DNA of 64,000 nucleotides. Source: Botryosphaeria dothidea (taxonomy: Eukaryota > Ascomycota > Dothideomycetes > Botryosphaeriales > Botryosphaeriaceae). The notes beneath the pieces were generated by a model. It saw only the letters and a list, made by a program, of their open reading frames with translations, was not told the DNA's origin and did no database searches. Positions 5,931 through 55,300 of the stretch are shown here, piece by piece. Numbering within the stretch: position 1 is the first letter of the stretch; each line of letters starts with the position of its first letter. A program made the translations under genes and the position numbers. The stretch spans positions 2,046,001 to 2,110,000 of the forward strand of contig WWBZ02000051.1 of assembly GCA_011503125.2 (NCBI GenBank), written 5' to 3'.

Positions 5931-7122
5931 ATGGCATCTATCAAAGTCGACTCCGCCGTCGAAAAGGATGACCTTTTCATCCCCGTCCGTCTCCCCCAGC
6001 TCTTCCCACACCACCACTAAAAGAACACATACTCACTGACCACCCCCAGCTCATCGACTTCTCCCAATACACCACGGCCCCCGACCCCACCACGCGCCTC
6101 GCCACCGCCACCGCCCTCCTCACCGGCTTCCAGCGCGCCGGCTTCGTCTACCTCAAGAACCACGGCATCGCGCCCTCGACCGTGCGCGCCGTCTTCGCGC
6201 ACAGCGCCTCCTTCTTCGCGCGCCCGCAGCCGCAAAAGGACGCGCTGGCGTGGTACTCGCCGCGCGCCAACCGCGGCTACGTGACGCAAGGGCGCGAGAA
6301 GGTGACGCGCGCGGACTTCGCCGGCGACGTCGACGCGCTGCGCGCGAGCGTCCCCGATCTGAAGGAGTCGATGGAGATTGGCAGGGAGGGGGAGGACGGG
6401 TGTCCGAACATGTGGCCGGATGGGTTTGACGGGGAGGGCGTGGACTTCAGGGAGACGATGGCGGCGTTCCATGGGGAGTGCAAGGAGTTGCATCGGCGGG
6501 TGATGAGGGCGATTGCGTTGGGGATGGGGTTGGAGGAGGGGTGGTTTGATGGGTATACGGGGAAGGGCGACAATACGCTGAGGTTGCTGCATTATCCAGC
6601 GGTCGAGAGGGGCGTGTTTAAGAGGGAGGATGGGCTCGAGCAGGTTAGGGCGGGGGAGCATTCGGATTATGGTGGGTTTCCATTTCTGTCCTTTCAGGAG
6701 GGGTACTGGAATGTGACTGACGTTGAACAGGCTCTTTGACCTTGCTCTTCCAGGACGACCGTGGTGGTTTGCAGGTGCTGTCTCCGAAGGGCACGTTTGT
6801 CGATGCGACGCCCATCCCGGATACCATTGTCATCAATGCTGGTGATTTGCTGGAGCGATGGGCCAACGATACCATCAAGAGCACCAAGCACCGCGTAGTC
6901 GAGCCCCCGCCCAAGCCCGGTCAGGAGGAGCTCGACAAGTACCCGGCTAGGTACAGCGTTGCCTACTTCTGCAATCCAGACTTCGACAAATTCATCGAGG
7001 CCATTCCTGGGACATACGAGGAGGGAAAGCAGAAATATCCAGGAGTGCTGAGTGGAGATTATTTGGCCAAGAGATTGAGCGAAACGTATGGGGACTTGGA
7101 CAAGTATGAGAAGAAGGCGTAG
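5931..7122 (+). CDS. 2OG-Fe(II) oxygenase, isopenicillin N synthase-like
   Basis: Three exons, 5931-5984, 6050-6671 and 6731-7122 (355 aa), frame preserved across 65 and 59 nt introns. The N-terminal DIOX_N part is present (LIDFSQYT, GFVYLKNHGI). The double-stranded beta-helix core has the iron-binding HxD (EHSDYGSLTLLFQD, straddling intron 2), a distal H (STKHRVVEPP) and the 2OG-binding R (ARYSVAYFCNPD). Fungal members act in secondary metabolism, detoxification or gibberellin-like chemistry; substrate unknown. No biosynthetic cluster surrounds it, so a housekeeping or stand-alone role is more likely. Confidence 0.9.
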
Positions 7123-7680
7123 GCACAGAAGAAAGAATACCCAGACTTGAAGAAGCGCAGCATATTAGGAGCCAGGAAAAATGAATTTTGAGGGTGAAAA
7201 GAAATTAAAGATCAAACCTACAGCTGGTGCACAAACTTTCAGCAACAAGTGTTGTTTTCAGTACAAAATCGCTGCAGAGCTTTGTTCTGTTGTCATTGTA
7301 GATGGCGATGACGGAATCACGAGAACTCATTTGACTCAGATTAAACACCATGCCCCTTCAAGTCTTTCCACCCATCCAACATGACCGATGTAATAGTGTG
7401 TAGAGAGATGGTTGAAAGTCTTCGTGGGGTCTCGAGAGATTCGCCAACTCATCAGGGGCGGGCAATCTCGGGCCGAGAGCCACACTTCCAGCACATTTGC
7501 CCGCTCACCTAGCAAAATAGGGGCCAACAATGAGTTCTAACAATCATCAAAATTCATCAGTTGGTTCAGGAGTTTTCACCACCAGAAAAGGGTGAAAGAT
7601 TGTCCGGTAAAATTTCCATCGCATTTTGAATAGAGACATAACACATCTTGACGGACAGAGCCTTCATCAACCAAGTGATT
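7123..7680. other. Intergenic, no gene seen
   Basis: About 560 nt of moderately AT-rich sequence between the oxygenase gene and the first tRNA. No supported gene. Confidence 0.5.
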
Positions 7681-7816
7681 GGCGTTGTGGCGGAGTGTAA
7701 GATAACTTTGTCATCCTCGGTCTTCAAATTATGAAACTAATAATACCTCAGGGTTAACGCGACAGACTAGAAATCTGTTTCCTTCGGGAGCGCAGGTTCG
7801 AATCCTGCCGACGTCG
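7681..7816 (+). tRNA. tRNA-Ser(AGA) interrupted in the D-loop
   Basis: Acceptor strands ggcgttg (7681-7687) and cgacgtc (7809-7815) pair along all 7 positions, two as G-U. The anticodon arm is acaga-ctagaaa-tctgt with anticodon AGA; a UCC-UUCG-GGA variable arm and a perfect T arm (gcagg-ttcgaat-cctgc) follow. The D stem gcg/cgc closes only if 7697-7751 is removed, which also restores the invariant GG of the D loop and leaves an 81 nt tRNA. T runs at 7819-7822 and 7824-7829 look like a Pol III terminator. The interruption is not at the canonical 37/38 site. It is either functional after unusual splicing or a disrupted copy; the intact arms favour function. Confidence 0.8.
7697..7751 (+). other. 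Spliceosomal-type intron inside tRNA-Ser(AGA)
   Basis: The 55 nt insert starts GTAAGATAAC, has a branch-like ACTAATA about 12 nt before its end and finishes CCTCAG. These are the donor, branch and acceptor motifs of the protein-gene introns in this same window, and the length is in their range. Exact excision restores a canonical serine tRNA. Confidence 0.75.
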
Positions 7817-8547
7817 AGTTTTCTTTTTTCGCTCGTGAGACCTCCTATGGGAAGGGCAGAGGGGGGCATTCTCTTTTGCGGTGGGGCCCGGACACGACCC
7901 TCCAAACGTGGATATTTGGAATCGAGGAAGAAATTGGTTAAAGTTCCAAACGCACGAGCAGAAGTGGAACAGCGAAGCGATATTCCCGTTTTACCATACG
8001 GTTGACCGTCTTTCTCCATGTGCTCTAAGTATAGAAGAGTTCAGATGGGCTGATAATGGAAAGCTTATGTACGAACTATTGACATGTCCAGACCCGAGAT
8101 TGGAGTACGTATGCATGCAGGCAAATCAGAAAGTCACGGTGTCCTATCCTGCAATTCAAGGACGTTTTGATTTTGAGGATTGTAGAATTTCCATACCATG
8201 TCGAATGCAACCTACCATTGAAAGGGCAGGTGTATCCAATTTAACCGTAACGCAAATCCTTACTTCCTGCTCTCGCGGTTGCTTGAGAGCATAAAAATGT
8301 CTTACTTTACGCGCCGGCTAACAGGTGCTGCTATGGTCGATTGCTCGAGGACTAGAACCCCTCGGGCAGTCGCACACGCCCCCTGCCCCTCGCTTCCCTC
8401 CGAAAAAACAGCAACACACTATCTGCATGTGAAGAAGAGAAGGCATATGGGCCAGGGATTAGCGATGGCCACAAGATTTTACCCCGTACGCCGTAATAGC
8501 ACTTGATAGTCATTGCAAGCCACCGCTTTGTCATCAAATCAGCACAT
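7817..8547. other. Spacer between two tRNA-Ser genes
   Basis: About 730 nt. It begins with the likely Pol III terminator of the upstream tRNA. The open frames here (for example 7881-8294) carry no recognisable domain. Confidence 0.5.
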
Positions 8548-8663
8548 GGCGTGGTGCTAGAGTGGTTAATAGGTGAGACTCGAATCGTTCCTTCTCACGA
8601 AGGTTCGAAATAAGTCGACATCTCATGGCTTCGGCCGCGCAAGTTCGAATCTTGTCCACGTCG
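8548..8663 (+). tRNA. tRNA-Ser(CGA) with canonical intron
   Basis: Acceptor strands ggcgtgg and ccacgtc pair fully (one G-U), with discriminator G at 8663. The D stem is cta/tag; the anticodon stem tgaga/tctca encloses loop ct-CGA-a with anticodon at 8581-8583. A variable arm ggc-ttcg-gcc and T arm gcaag-ttcgaat-cttgt follow. A 35 nt intron (8585-8619) sits at the canonical position 37/38 and folds into a ccttc-tcac-gaagg hairpin. Intron-bearing tRNA-Ser(CGA) is common in fungi. T5 at 8679-8683 is a likely terminator. Confidence 0.9.
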
Positions 8664-9449
8664 CATAAGACCGATTTCTTTTTGTCTTCTTTGCCTCTTT
8701 CTCTCTGCAGCGTTGGGAGCGGACGCTACGAGACACTCCTTTTTCGCGGGTGGGCGGTGTGTTTGGTGTGGTGGGGCGGCAGATGTATGTGGGGCAAACA
8801 CGAGGAGCGAGATCATGATTCGTGCGACTGGGGGCACACCAAAAAACCTCTTTCCTTTGCCGCTTGTCCTCACCGGCTGCTGTGTCCACGTCTCGTAACC
8901 ACATGGTTGGAGCATTGTGGCTTCTGGACTTCCTCGTCGCGACGTCATGACTCAGTCTTGTGCACGAGTGGCTACGTGTGAGACATACAGAATACGGTGC
9001 ACTGCAGCTCGAGGAAGCAGCGGAGGAAGTGGGACGTTTGGAGAACAAAGTCAGTTTTCGGAGAGCATGAAGGGGCAATCGACCTCTCCAGACACGGGGG
9101 CGACAGAGCAAAAACAAACGTTCGAAAATGCTGACCATACCGGGGAAGCAGGGGGAAAGACGAAAAGGAACTGAAACAAGGGTGAGAAAAAGCACGTCTG
9201 GAAGAAGGATAAAACCCCATCATTTGGATATATAACCAGCCCTCGTCCTTGTCCCGCGGACAGAATCTCTTCTCTACGCAAAAACACACAAAGCAGCCAA
9301 AACCGCGCCACCAGATCCTCATGAAAAGAAGTTCGTTTCGTAAATGCTCAACAACCCGTCATCATCATCGTCACAGTAACTTCAAAGCCCAACGACAATC
9401 CAACCTTTATCCCCCCCCCCCTTTTTTTTTTTATGTGGAAGAGGAATAT
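8664..9449. other. Intergenic, no gene seen
   Basis: About 790 nt between the tRNA and the transporter's 3' end. Overlapping open frames exist on both strands without family signal. The right end carries the C11T11 tract described separately. Confidence 0.5.
9411..9432 (+). repeat. C11 T11 homopolymer junction
   Basis: Eleven C followed by eleven T, 17 nt beyond the transporter stop codon. On the transporter transcript it would read A11 G11 in the 3' UTR. Confidence 0.9.
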
Positions 9450-32151: not shown

Positions 32152-35100
32152 CTACCATACCACCGCATCCCTATCGAAGCGGACGAGCTCTTTGCCCACA
32201 TCTTCGACATCCTTCTTCGCTTTCATACGCATGTAGAAGATGGGACAATCTCGGCTGCTGCAGATGACCTCATTGTGCATGCTACCCTGGCAGCGCTGGC
32301 ACTGGGTCCAGAGTCTCGCAAATCGTACTTCAAGATCGCTGACCTTCGCCAGTGTCTTCTGGTACAGCTCCCCGAAACGCGGCCGACAGTTCTCGCAGAC
32401 CGCACCGTCACGCTCGGCAGCACTCGTCAAAGGCTTCTTGCAACCCATGCAGGTGGCCGTCTTCTTCGCAAACTTCATCAGGCCACCCATGGTAGGAGCC
32501 GCGACGGAGATACTTCGGGTGTGCTCGCCCGTTAGGAGCTGTGCTGCCTTCTTTTCTCCCAAGATAGGCTCGAAAATTCTGCCGAGAGGCTTCGCCAGCT
32601 GGTTGTCGAGGTAGTACTTGGTGTCGATCGGCAGGTTGTTCTCCAAGACGTAGATAGGGTCTTCTGATTTCTCGTAGTTCCTTGAATCAGCTGCTCCCTT
32701 AACGATGACGTACGCGACGCGGTCTCCCAATGCGGGCGCAGATCCCGCATCACGCTTCTTCATCCGCTCAGCGAGCTCAACGTGGGCCTGCTTCGCAGCG
32801 TAGTCTGACTTGGCCAAAGCTTTCGTGATCACGAGATTGGACATATCGATCCTGTTCTGCAACAGATCGGAGATTGTCTCCTTCACGAACCTAGAAACTG
32901 TTAGCGAAATCTCATGACTAGTTGCGGTGGGGCATCACTCACTCTTGTGCCCCATTGACGTCGCGGTCGATCAGCAGCATACGCAGCGATGTCTCGATAA
33001 CGGTTTGAACCAATCGACAATTGTCGCGGCGGACCGTCTCAATACCCTTTGTGTCCATCTTGTCCCACTTGTTCGGGTTCGTCCAGTACAAACCCGCGTA
33101 GCGCTTCTTGTTGATAAGCAGGTAAGGGAAATAGACCTTCTCGAACTCAAGCTTGATGGGCTTGGTAAAGTGCGATGAGACAAAGCCCGCAGCCTCTTCA
33201 CCCATCGCCATCGCCTTCTCCAGCTCCTTCGGACCAAACTTGACCATGACCGAATCTGTATCACCGTAAATGACCTGAGCGTCGTGAGAATATCCGTTGG
33301 CGATGGTGTAGTGCTCTTCCACAACTTCCTTGGTCTTCTCAATCATCTGACGACCGTAACTCGTTGTGCTACTGGCAATTGCCAAGCAAGGAAGCTTTCC
33401 ATTCGTGGCACCCGTCAGACCGTACACACTGTTAGCGCTGACCTTCAGCGCCAGTTGACGGCCGTTGAGTACGGCTTTCCTGAAGGGGTCTTTCTCCAGG
33501 CCCATCTCTTTCTTCGCCTGTTTTCTGGCACCAAGCAATTCCTCGAAGATCTGGGTCAAGAGACCCTTGCGGATCTTGGGAGTACAGAACAAATCACCGT
33601 TAGGGGTAACGATGTAGTCCTCGCCCTTCTTCAAGTTTAGCTTCTCAACAGAATTCTTGTTCAAAAGCGTCGTGTAGCAGAGGTTGTGGGCCTGAATAAC
33701 GCTGGGGTACAGCGAGGCGAAATCGAGTGTGGCAATGGGGACGTCGTAGTAACCGCGAGTGGGCTCAATGACAGTAGCCCCTTCATACTGGTCCTCGGTA
33801 CTCTCTGAGCGGAGATTAGGAATAACTAGTTGCTGCTCCAATGCCTTACGGTACAGCTGGCTGAGGAATTTGACCTGCTGGCCACGTGAAAGAAGGAAAC
33901 TGAATGGAACACCCGTGACTCTGGCCATTTCGGTGTAGTTGACCAGACACATGAGCTTGTCGAGTAATCTCATAGGGAGGTAGGCATCTTTCAAGCAGTA
34001 TACAGCCAGACGACGCCTTGAGTTTGAATCGCCGTTGAAGAGTTCAGTGATCATAGTGTGATGCACGTCTTCCTTCTGTTCGCCAAGGAAATGGGCGCAA
34101 ACGGAGTTCAGTGTATAGCTTCTCAAGTGATAGTCTCGCTGCACGAGCTGGAGCAGGTCAAGCTGAATGCGTCCGTTGGTGTTTGTGGCCTTGGTGTCGC
34201 GGTTTCCCATTTGCTTGCTGGAAAAGTTCGTTTCCTTGGCCTGTGACATCGTGTTCCTCAACCTTGACCAATACGGAAAGCGTCCACACTTGAGATGCTT
34301 GGCGCGGTCCAGTAGATACGGAAAATCGAAGTTGGCAATGTTGTAGCCGATGATAACGTCTGGATCTACCTCCTCGAGGAAGTCCCTCCATGCCATGAGC
34401 ATTTTCTCTTCTGCATCATACTCAAGAACCTGAGCGTTCACGATTAGGCTGCACGTGTCCAAGCAGAAGACATTTCGAACAAACGGCTTTTCAGCTCCGG
34501 CGATGTTGACGACGTTGGCGATTTGGATGACGGGGTCGACATTAGGTTCTGGGAAAATGCCTTTTCGACCAGCACACTCAATATCGAATGACAGGATACG
34601 CAGCGGTGCCATCTTGGCCCACTCTCCATCAGCTTGGTGCGCAATGAGGTCCCTGTAATGCACGTAGGCCTCAATTTGACATGTTGAGTGACGGTCTCTC
34701 TGAGGTATCATGTGGTATTTTCCAGCCTTCGCCTCGACCCACGACATGCCGGCAATCTGGAGGAGTCAGTACCAGCAGAAGAAATTGATCGAACAACATA
34801 CCTTGCAATCAACCATGAAGCGAAGCACGTATTGAAGATTGTCGAAGGTCAGAATGCTTCCATCCGCCACCTTCCATAGACCCTTGTAGTTGGCATTCCC
34901 AGATTCAATCGTTGTACGGAGCCTGTTGATGAACTTTGGATCCGTAACAGCGATCTTCAGATACGGGCTCTTTTGATTGCCCTGGAAACCATATATGTTC
35001 TCTCGCATGGTCATCTGCACGGAATGAATGGCTGGTTGGTGCTGGGCGATCTGAGTTTCCAAATATGCCTTGAAAGGCATGCAATCGGCCTGCGTAAAAG

Positions 35101-52336: not shown

Positions 52337-55300
52337 TTAAGTGTAAACTTCCTCCGTGAAAGCGTTCAGCTGGACGCCGCTCTTGGCAACGTCCTCATCC
52401 TTTAAGAACAGCAGAGGCATCTCTACGAGAGTACCCCTGATCCTGCTCAGGATCTCCTTGACCTGCCTGGCGCCCTCCTCGCCAGGAGCGAAGTTCTCAG
52501 AGATGACGTGGCCACGCTTGTAGCGACGAGGCTTCCCCTCGTGGCCATCGTCCTCCTTGGCCTCCTCATCCTTCTCATCCTTCTCCTTCTTGTCCTCCTT
52601 GAAGTAGCGCTCGTAGTACTCGTCGTACTGGTCCCAAGTGCGGACGCCGTCGAACGGCACGGCGTGGAAGACCTCGCCAAAGGCATCCGTGTTGGTCTTG
52701 GCGGTAGTGTTCCAAAGAGACTGGAACTCATCAGAGATAGGGTCAGCGACAAGCTCATCCTCGCGGCTGCCCCAGTCGTAAACGTTAGGCGTGCCAGTGG
52801 GACGGAAGTTGTCGTCGGGGCGCTCCATGTCCTGCGGCTTGAGCAGACCAAGGTGCTTACGGGTAAGCTGGCGACGTAGACTGGCGGCAAACTTGGACGC
52901 GCGCCAGGACTGGCCATCCATGACAGACTCGACCGGAGTCGGGTCCTCAATGACGACAGCGATTTCTGAGTCGTGGTCACCCAACTGACTGCGGTCGTTG
53001 AGGTTGGCGGAACCGCAGATAACGACGCGGTCATCGGCAATGAGGAGCTTCGAGTGGATGTACAGCTCCTCCGTGACAAATGAGTCAATTTCGGGGTTGC
53101 TGCCGGTCCACGGGATATTCCTGATGTCCTCGCCACCAAGCATGTAGCACTCAGAAACGGAGTCCCAGCGACCACTGGCCAGACCCTTCTCAGAGCCGAG
53201 CTCGCGGGCGCCACGCTGGTAGTCGTCGTAGCTATCTTCGTTGCCGCGACGGGGGTAGCCGTCTTCCTCGCCCTCGCGCTCCTGGTAACGACCGCCATAT
53301 TCACGGTCGTGCTCCTCACGAGCCTCATCGTAAGAGACGCCAGCGTTTTCCTCAGCATCGGCGAGAGCACCGCTGATGTTGATTCGGTCGTAGTTGCGAA
53401 GGTTGTAAAAGCGGAGGTACTCCAGAGGGTTGATGCCCTCGGCAGCGATGGTCTCGTAGATACTCTTGCCATGGCCACGGTTGATCGACTTATATTGGAA
53501 CTCCATGATGGCACGAGTGCTGAGAGCCTCATCCGCCTTGAGATCGCCGGGGAAAGCAGGAACAGCAGGAATCATGATGATCGCCTTCCACTTCTCACCA
53601 TTCTTGTGCGCGCGGAGCACACGCTCAACGATGGCGGCGCCAATCATGTTCTTGATGGGCTTCTGGTCTTCACACGTTGCCGTAATGAAGAACTGGTTCT
53701 CAATGTAGATGAAGTGCTTACTGTTCTTGATGTTTTCGATGTAGGCGTTTTGGATGGAGTGCTAAAATGGGATTAGAATAATGTCTTGGAACAACTGATT
53801 TTGAGTACTTACTTCGACCTGGACACCATGGCTCCATTGGGCACAGCTACGAGTCAGCTGGATGGCAGCGGGGCCGCTGCCTGACCTGTCGTTGGAGCCG
53901 CCGTGCTGTTCCCGCTCAGGTTCGCGGTTGCCATAGCCGAGATGATGCTCGGCCCTCTCAAACTGGTGGTGTGCGTGATGCGAAAGGTTGGTGAGGGTCT
54001 TCCGGAAACCACCACCCTCGCCTTCGCCGTAGGCAAGATCATCATCTTCTCTTCTAGGCGGGGATGGATTCTTCTCGATTTTCAAGCGCTCAAACCTGCC
54101 ATCGTTCTTGATCTTGTACTTCTCGTGGAAGATGTAGTTCCATCGCTGGACGAAATGCTCCTGCAGATCTGCCACGACCGGACCGTTGATGTTGAGAGCC
54201 ACGTCGGACCAACCCATACGGGAGCTCTCCTGGCGGTCGAGCTTGTTGTTCTGCCAGTTGGCAACATCCTGGAAATCCATGATACGGGCGTTGTTGTAAT
54301 CCTGACCAGGAAAAACAATGCGGTTCAAGTCACCGGGGTGCACATCAGCAATTTGGTGCTGGTTGGTATCCCAACGGCCGTAGCAGAGATCCAGACCGCC
54401 CATGAAGGCGATCTCACCATCGACGATACACAACTTCTCGTGGTGGGCCCAGAAGAGAACAGTATCTTCATGTGAGCCGTAGATAGCCTTGAAAGCATCC
54501 CAAGGAGCAGTCGAAATCGACTTGGCGTTCAGGCTGAAGCCCTTGAACTGGTCGATGAAATCCTGTGCCAGGGTATTGTGGTCCACATAGTGGTCGGGGT
54601 GGCGCTCAACGGCGATGTTGGGATGCAGGGACTCGAGGTGGTGCTTGGTGTGTTTGGAGGAGACTGTAAGAGGCGGGGCAATCAGCGGGTCCGTTGCCTC
54701 AGAATAATCCAAAGATTTGAAGATGACGTCCAATCCGAGGTGGGTGAGCACGCCGGTAATTGGGTCGATAGGGCGGGGAAGGAGGGAACCAAGGTACCCG
54801 GACAGCAATGGGCTTATGTACTTACGGGTCAGGGCCTGCTCGACCTCCTTGTAGACGATAATTCTAACTTTGACGCCACGCTCAGCAGCAGCTTGCAACA
54901 TGCGGTCAATGCGGTACATCTGATTCTTCGCGGGAGGGCGACGCAGGTACAGCTCCGGGGAAAGCCACCCTAAGGCAGGTTAGTGCTGTGTATCGTAGTA
55001 CGGCAGCGGATGTCTCACAGTCGAGGATCCAGATGGACTCGCGTGCCTTCTCCAGGGCCTCAGACACGGCCCACATGTAGCCGCAGCCATCGACAAACCA
55101 CTTGATATCGTTGTCGTGGCGCTTGGGAGCGAAACTCAGGTAGCGGTGGTCGGCATACTTCTGAGCGCCCTCCTGGGCAGTCTGAGCAGCTACCTCGCTG
55201 ACCTGTTCGTGGGTGTTCTGGTTTTCCTCGTCTTCCTTTCCGGTGATAAGCTCGCCGATCTTGTTGAAGAAGGAAGCCATCTGGGGCGGTTTTTCGGTGG

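What the first reader, a model, noticed from the sequence alone, without database searches (positions are those of the whole stretch)
7681..7816. tRNA-Ser(AGA) gene with a spliceosomal-type intron in its D-loop
Removing 7697-7751 restores all arms of a serine tRNA, including the D stem gcg/cgc and the GG of the D loop. The removed 55 nt has a GTAAGA donor, an ACTAATA branch-like site about 12 nt from the end and a CAG acceptor, i.e. the grammar of the protein-gene introns here. Eukaryotic nuclear tRNA introns normally sit at 37/38 and are cut by the tRNA endonuclease; this one is elsewhere and has no such structure. U6 genes of some fungi carry mRNA-type introns, so a Pol III transcript being spliced by the spliceosome has a precedent; I know of none for a tRNA. 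It would also split box A.
Basis: partly seen in the sequence, partly recalled or inferred. Interest (0 to 1): 0.88.

Follow-up and report, generated by a model that had tools for sequence, protein, structure and literature searches.

The report
Spliceosome-type introns in tRNA genes
A fungus related to Botryosphaeria dothidea carries short messenger-RNA-type introns inside many of its transfer-RNA genes, including every nuclear phenylalanine tRNA gene that was found, so its spliceosome probably has to cut these tRNAs before it can make protein.

Summary
Window 7681-7816 is a tRNA-Ser(AGA) gene interrupted in the D-loop by 55 nt (7697-7751: GTAAG, ACTAATA, CAG). The host is a Botryosphaeria close to B. 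dothidea. Its genome holds 27 such tRNA gene copies at about 25 loci, for ten tRNA kinds, at seven positions, all 5' of the anticodon. In the 23 copies read whole the introns are 51-62 nt with CTAAY 9-12 nt before exon 2, and removal restores a tRNA in 23 of 23. Among paralogues exons are 97% identical, splice signals 90%, intron cores 54% (shuffled 49%). All 5 nuclear Phe(GAA) genes found carry this intron plus a 37/38 intron, so decay of spare copies cannot explain it. No bulge-helix-bulge, group I features or, in three of four groups, conserved fold was found. Best reading: Pol III pre-tRNAs are spliced first by the spliceosome, then by the tRNA endonuclease. There is no RNA evidence here, no second species could be compared, and the tRNA census is incomplete. 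Ten library searches showed no precedent for tRNA; Pol III U6 and Pol I rRNA are precedents.

The parts
7681..7696 (+). tRNA-Ser(AGA) exon 1 (positions 1-16)
   Evidence: numbering by hand
7688..7698 (+). box A read through the exon/intron border, TGGCGGAGTGT, 10 of 11 to consensus
   Evidence: consensus recalled
7697..7751 (+). 55-nt spliceosomal-type intron in the D-loop (between 16 and 18)
7697..7702 (+). 5' splice site GTAAGA
7736..7742 (+). branch site ACTAATA, branch A inferred at 7740
7749..7751 (+). 3' splice site CAG
7752..7816 (+). tRNA-Ser(AGA) exon 2, anticodon AGA at 7769-7771, discriminator G at 7816
7795..7805 (+). box B GGTTCGAATCC, intact
   Evidence: consensus recalled
7819..7829 (+). 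likely Pol III terminator TTTTCTTTTTT

Best explanation
These are U2-type spliceosomal introns in functional Pol III tRNA genes. TFIIIC and Pol III use box A and box B, which the introns leave essentially intact (inferred). The primary transcript is recognised by U1/U6 at GTAAG and by U2 at CTAAY, and the spliceosome removes about 55 nt in the nucleus (inferred). Only then can the D arm or anticodon stem fold. The separate 37/38 intron, present in most of these genes, is removed afterwards by the tRNA splicing endonuclease, which needs the folded tRNA body (inferred from the known enzyme). Shown here: the gene anatomy, its repetition at many loci and positions, selective conservation of splice signals, and that no nuclear Phe(GAA) gene without the intron was found.
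For: 23 of 23 copies read whole are called as the expected tRNA by ARAGORN once the intron is removed. Of the first 20, none was called as its true tRNA unspliced: 9 gave no gene and 11 a wrong one. Introns 51-62 nt, mean 55.4; GTNNG 23 of 23; CTAAC/T 23 of 23 with 11 nt (16), 12 nt (6) or 9 nt (1) to exon 2; CAG 14, TAG 9. Protein-gene introns in the window have the same grammar, e.g. 32891-32942 (52 nt, GTGAGT, GCTAAC, CTAG) and 53762-53812 (51 nt, GTAAGT, TCTAAT, TTAG), both minus strand. In 20 paralogue pairs: exon pieces 97% identical, signals 90%, intron cores 54% (shuffled 49%), 5' flanks 54%, 3' flanks 64%. Phe(GAA): 5 places, 5 split after position 30 and again before 38. Ala(AGC): 3 of 3 genes with a 5' half. 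iMet: 3 of 4 places split at position 23 of the query. T runs of 4 or more lie within 60 nt downstream in 22 of 22 copies whose 3' flank was held. Precedents: S. pombe U6, a Pol III transcript with an mRNA-type intron (PMC8917221, passages); yeast removing a 57-bp spliceosomal intron from Pol I rRNA (PMC8527467, passages).
Against: No RNA data were available, so splicing and lariats are inferred. Copies without the mRNA-type intron exist for Ser(AGA), iMet and Trp, Val(CAC) (L052) and, by length, Pro(AGG), so those interrupted copies could individually be dispensable. Some donors are weak (GTTCGT in L106, GTACGC in L132). The three U6 matches are full length, so without an intron: not every Pol III gene is affected. 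Pattern hits as such do not exceed their reversed controls. Leu introns gave a fold z of -2.6 (3 sequences). Search counts are lower bounds: many nuclear tRNA kinds did not show at all, so a divergent nuclear Phe gene without the intron could have been missed; a mitochondrial-type Phe(GAA) without an intron is on C14. No second species could be checked.
Confidence: 0.9

Rival explanations
1. The tRNA splicing endonuclease removes these introns too, through bulge-helix-bulge structures at non-canonical sites, as in red algae, nucleomorphs and archaea.
For: Non-canonical positions such as 25/26 and 30/31 in archaea, and tRNA genes with two or three introns, are known (PMC4090602, passages). Many of the same genes here have 37/38 introns.
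Against: The four-pair central helix between exon 1 and intron end, tested in its simplest geometry, is complete in 0 of 22 copies. Three of four paralogue groups show no conserved intron fold, z from 0.39 to -0.77; Leu gives z -2.6 on 3 sequences. What is conserved is GTNNG, CTAAY and YAG, which that enzyme is not known to read.
Confidence: 0.04
2. They are dead tRNA copies hit by insertions.
For: PMC4090602 says D- or T-arm insertions in eukaryotic tRNA genes are supposed to be mostly pseudogenes (passage). Copies without the intron exist for several kinds.
Against: 5 of 5 nuclear Phe genes found are interrupted. Exon pieces stay 97% identical while intron cores drift to 54%. L001 and L002/L004 differ by paired changes in the T stem. 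Terminators and boxes persist.
Confidence: 0.03
3. They are tiny degenerate group I introns helped by a protein.
For: Putative group I introns of 56-81 nt are described from fungal rRNA genes (PMC3160393, start of abstract in listing).
Against: Group I introns need U as last base of exon 1 (recalled); exon 1 ends in T in only 3 of 23. An mRNA-type branch site is present in 23 of 23, and no fold is shared in three of four groups.
Confidence: 0.01
4. The genes are transcribed by Pol II as part of longer RNAs, spliced there, and the tRNA is cut out later.
For: Spliceosomes normally act on Pol II transcripts (general knowledge).
Against: Box A scores unspliced within one base of its spliced score in 22 of 22 copies, and T runs follow 22 of 22. 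Transcription itself was not tested.
Confidence: 0.05

Closest known systems
mRNA-type intron of the U6 snRNA gene (S. pombe and others)
   Same: Short mRNA-type intron in a Pol III transcript, removed by the spliceosome (PMC8917221, passages)
   Different: One snRNA gene; here many tRNA genes and seven positions, while this genome's three U6 matches lack an intron
Spliceosomal introns in lichen-fungus rDNA
   Same: A 57-bp spliceosomal intron in a non-Pol II, non-coding RNA; yeast removes it from Pol I rRNA (PMC8527467, passages)
   Different: rRNA and Pol I, not tRNA and Pol III
Non-canonical tRNA introns of nucleomorphs, Cyanidioschyzon and archaea
   Same: D-arm and anticodon-stem positions, several introns in one tRNA gene (PMC4090602, passages)
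   Different: Those are read as endonuclease substrates (BHB) or are unexplained short ones; here mRNA-intron signals and no complete BHB helix
Canonical 37/38 tRNA introns
   Same: Occur in the same genes here, except Ser(AGA) and iMet
   Different: Different position and signals

Membership tests
U2-type spliceosomal intron | GT...AG ends with a donor fitting U1 | tested here: met
   GT/AG 23 of 23; GTNNG 23 of 23; GTAAG 13 of 23
U2-type spliceosomal intron | branch site at a fixed short distance from the 3' splice site | tested here: met
   CTAAC/T in 23 of 23, 9-12 nt from exon 2. 17 of the 27 copies were first found with CTAAY in the search pattern; 10 were not (Ser 3; Phe 2 and iMet 1; Ala 2; iMet 2), and the 8 of those read whole have it too
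U2-type spliceosomal intron | same size and signals as the host's protein-gene introns | tested here: met
   window introns such as 32891-32942 and 53762-53812 (a mechanical list of 42 rows, not every row a real intron)
U2-type spliceosomal intron | removed as a lariat by the spliceosome in vivo | not testable with these tools
   no RNA data
tRNA endonuclease (BHB) intron | position 37/38 | tested here: not met
   positions 10/11, 16/18, 18/19, 19/20, 24/25, 25/26, 30/31, by hand numbering of sequences
tRNA endonuclease (BHB) intron | helix with bulges at both borders | tested here: not met
   0 of 22 with four pairs in the simplest geometry; maximum three, in L002 and L004
group I intron | U at exon 1 end, G at intron end, catalytic fold | tested here: not met
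   T at exon end 3 of 23; no conserved fold in three of four groups
functional nuclear tRNA gene | all arms after splicing, box A/B, T-run terminator | tested here: met
functional nuclear tRNA gene | mature tRNA made and charged | not testable with these tools
   no RNA data

The most novel reading that the evidence does not exclude
In this Botryosphaeria the spliceosome is an obligatory tRNA-maturation machine. All cytosolic tRNA-Phe, probably all tRNA-Ala(AGC), and a large share of several other tRNAs, including initiator tRNA, pass first through the spliceosome and then, where a 37/38 intron exists, through the tRNA endonuclease, so translation capacity is tied directly to splicing. Introns were gained repeatedly at sites that spare box A and box B.
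Probability: 0.82. Interest if true: 0.96.

Novelty: categorically new. Interest (0 to 1): 0.93.

Why it matters
Spliceosomal and tRNA splicing are treated as separate systems; a passage of a 2026 review says tRNA splicing depends on protein enzymes instead of the spliceosome (PMC13149111). A fungus in which all nuclear tRNA-Phe genes found need spliceosomal splicing breaks that division. It adds tRNA to U6 as Pol III transcripts that the spliceosome can enter. It gives a natural system to ask how introns are gained and tolerated in tRNA genes, how two splicing machines are ordered on one RNA, and whether splicing sets translation rate. It also means that usual tRNA searches can miss these genes: the tRNA model matched none of the 27 copies whole and one as a sub-threshold fragment.

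Tried and rejected
Relatives in other collections: a tRNA-Phe exon-donor pattern gave 1 viral-collection stretch and 10 prokaryote stretches, 11 of 11 uninterrupted tRNA genes of bacterial type. A Pro exon-donor pattern gave 2 viral-collection stretches, 2 of 2 without a recognisable tRNA. So no second species could be compared; the tool says this genome has no relatives held.

Pattern counts alone are not evidence: hits against reversed-pattern control were 44 vs 35, 52 vs 52, 42 vs 44, 31 vs 36. Only the tRNA structure of each hit counts. Of the 42 rows, 18 are interrupted tRNA genes; of 52, one (L109); of 31, three (Trp); of 44, the three Ser genes. I fetched 17 of 42, 3 of 52 and 1 of 31 rows after those calls (4 of the 42 were already held) and judged the other rows by their printed letters, some of which were cut short. 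Fetched and rejected: L100 and L110 (no clear tRNA), L111 (tRNA-Ile with only an anticodon-loop intron), L112 and L113 (protein-like). L117 is a 3' tRNA-Ala fragment; L056 is a damaged tRNA-Lys(CTT) and L057 an unclear weak hit.

A U6 intron was looked for and not found. ARAGORN on both strands read two Leu genes as Gly(CCC) with another intron; on one strand they are Leu(CAG). Literature searches; no paper on spliceosomal introns in tRNA genes appeared in their listings, some of which were cut (for example 15 of 338, 15 of 434).

Full report
What is in the window. At 7681-7816 (+) lies a tRNA-Ser(AGA) gene in two pieces, 7681-7696 and 7752-7816, around 55 nt that begin GTAAGA, contain ACTAATA at 7736-7742 and end CTCAG. 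ARAGORN without introns and Rfam at gathering score see nothing there; ARAGORN allowed introns up to 3000 gives a spurious tRNA-Glu over 6325-7817. With 7697-7751 removed, ARAGORN calls tRNA-Ser(AGA). A T run follows at 7819-7829. The 11-base box A is 10 of 11 even unspliced (same bases scored in L002).

The host. The window is part of a 51.7 Mb, 78-contig genome. The window's DNA ligase 4 is 97% identical over 1003 residues to a Botryosphaeria dothidea protein, with scattered differences. So the host is B. dothidea or a close relative (inferred). C14 (146 kb) behaves as the mitochondrial genome, with tRNA-Trp(TCA) among its tRNAs (inferred). Some contigs repeat others at near-constant offsets (C3/C12, C36/C78, C14/C26), so I count loci and copies apart.

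The same gene elsewhere. Four places match: L001 (this window), L002 and L004 with an intron of exactly 55 nt at the same site, and L003 without. L002 and L004 differ from L001 in the T stem by paired changes (GCAGG/CCTGC against ACAAG/CTTGT), as expected of working tRNAs.

Other tRNAs. ARAGORN on neighbouring loci showed mRNA-type introns in tRNA-Phe and initiator tRNA. Pattern searches for branch site, 3' splice site and box B and single-tRNA searches gave: Ser(AGA) 3, Phe(GAA) 5, iMet 3, Pro(AGG) 2, Pro(TGG) 2 at two different positions, Leu(CAG) 3, Val(CAC) 2 (one locus in duplicated contigs), Ala(AGC) 3, Glu(TTC) 1, Trp(CCA) 3 (two loci). That is 27 copies at about 25 loci. Of these, 23 were read whole. 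Two iMet copies are known only as exons split at the same position by about 54-57 nt, and two Trp copies by the printed branch-to-box-B stretch. Phe, Pro, Leu, Val, Ala, Glu and Trp also carry an intron at or next to 37/38, called by ARAGORN after removal of the first intron.

Positions. By hand numbering: 10/11 (Pro, L095), 16/18 (Ser), 18/19 (Pro), 19/20 (Ala), 24/25 (iMet, Trp, Val), 25/26 (Leu), 30/31 (Phe, Glu). All lie 5' of the anticodon. Box A scores unspliced within one base of its spliced score in 22 of 22 copies; in L095, where the intron falls inside it, the intron's last bases restore CAGTCTAGTGG, 10 of 11 (Phe scores 9 of 11 both ways because its box A is spaced differently). One search covered introns ending 10-40 nt before box B; among its 52 rows I saw no tRNA gene with an intron 3' of the anticodon loop (3 rows fetched, the rest judged by printed letters).

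Grammar. Over the 23 copies: length 51-62, mean 55.4; GTAAGT 9, GTAAGC 3, GTCAGT 3, GTGAGT 2, GTAGGT 2, four others 1 each; CTAAC/T 23 of 23; branch A 11 nt (16), 12 nt (6) or 9 nt (1) before exon 2; CAG 14, TAG 9. CTAAY and YAG were in the patterns that first found 17 of the 27 copies, so copies with other branch sites would have been missed there; the 8 whole-read copies found without a pattern (Ser 3, Phe 2, iMet 1, Ala 2) have CTAAY too. Protein-gene introns in the window look alike.

Chance and selection. Of 95 stretches of that grammar in 281,693 bases, only those in these genes yield a tRNA across the junction. The loci were partly chosen for tRNAs and overlap, so the figure is a specificity check, not a density. 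In 20 paralogue pairs: exon pieces (16 nt before the intron, last 36 nt of the gene) 1011/1044 identical, signals 233/260, intron cores 426/786 (0.54; shuffled 0.49), 5' flanks 0.54, 3' flanks 0.64. The introns have drifted almost to randomness except where the spliceosome reads. No fold is shared in Ser, Phe or Ala introns; Leu gives z -2.6 from three sequences. The exon-intron helix of a bulge-helix-bulge is complete in 0 of 22.

Necessity. Phe(GAA) is the only nuclear tRNA kind for phenylalanine codons (general knowledge). Five places match and 5 of 5 are split after 30 and before 38. The tRNA model search (a lower bound in which many kinds are missing) showed no nuclear Phe; its Phe hit on C14 is mitochondrial, and an equal-scoring one on C26, not fetched, lies at the same spacing in a contig that repeats C14. 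Ala(AGC): 4 places, 3 interrupted, the fourth a 3' fragment. iMet 3 of 4, Ser(AGA) 3 of 4. Pro(AGG) 2 of 3; the third matches over 87 nt, too short for a second such intron (letters not read). Leu(CAG): 2 of 2 places, plus the diverged L101. Trp genes without the mRNA-type intron (L045, L046) and a Val(CAC) with only an anticodon-loop intron (L052) also exist. Unless a divergent nuclear Phe gene was missed, these introns must be removed for the fungus to live.

Mechanism. Best supported: Pol III transcription from kept internal boxes, nuclear removal by the spliceosome, then the tRNA endonuclease at 37/38, since that enzyme measures the folded tRNA body. The order is inference. Spliceosomes act on non-Pol II RNA elsewhere: U6 in S. 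pombe (PMC8917221, passages) and a 57-bp intron in yeast Pol I rRNA (PMC8527467, passages).

Known or new. A 2014 review of tRNA introns does not contain the string 'spliceosom' in its main text and says D- or T-arm insertions in eukaryotes are supposed to be mostly pseudogenes, apart from nucleomorphs and a red alga (PMC4090602, passages). A 2026 review says in a passage that tRNA splicing depends on protein enzymes instead of the spliceosome (PMC13149111). A B. dothidea genome paper reports 137 tRNAs, without such a remark in the passages seen (PMC7325678). Ten library searches listed no paper on spliceosomal introns in tRNA genes. The library lacks most subscription papers and some listings were cut, so priority is not proved.

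Changes on re-check. I added the mitochondrial Phe genes and L056/L057, the spurious ARAGORN call, how each copy was first found, and the limits of the census.

Noticed in passing
window 8548-8664 (+): A second tRNA gene, Ser(CGA), with an ordinary anticodon-loop intron lies about 730 bases downstream of the Ser(AGA) gene.
   Followed up: partly
L094, L002, L105, L106, L108 and L107, L115, L116, 3' of the tRNA: The five Phe genes and three Ala genes have 33-48 nt between the tRNA and the T run, with an inverted repeat (e.g. ACCAGTCT..AGACTGG in Phe); in pairwise comparison 3' flanks are more alike than 5' flanks.
   Followed up: no
G000 contigs C3/C12, C36/C78, C14/C26: Near-constant offsets between matching genes suggest duplicated contigs or haplotypes in the 51.7 Mb assembly.
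   Followed up: partly
L098 and L109: The introns of a Pro(AGG) and a Glu(TTC) gene share the stretch ACAACTCATTCTAACAA near the branch site, perhaps intron copying between tRNA genes.
   Followed up: no
L117 1501-1531: A 3' fragment of tRNA-Ala with box B but no 5' half.
   Followed up: no
L056: A tRNA-Lys(CTT) copy that seems to lack part of its T arm, while intact Lys(CTT) genes exist elsewhere.
   Followed up: no
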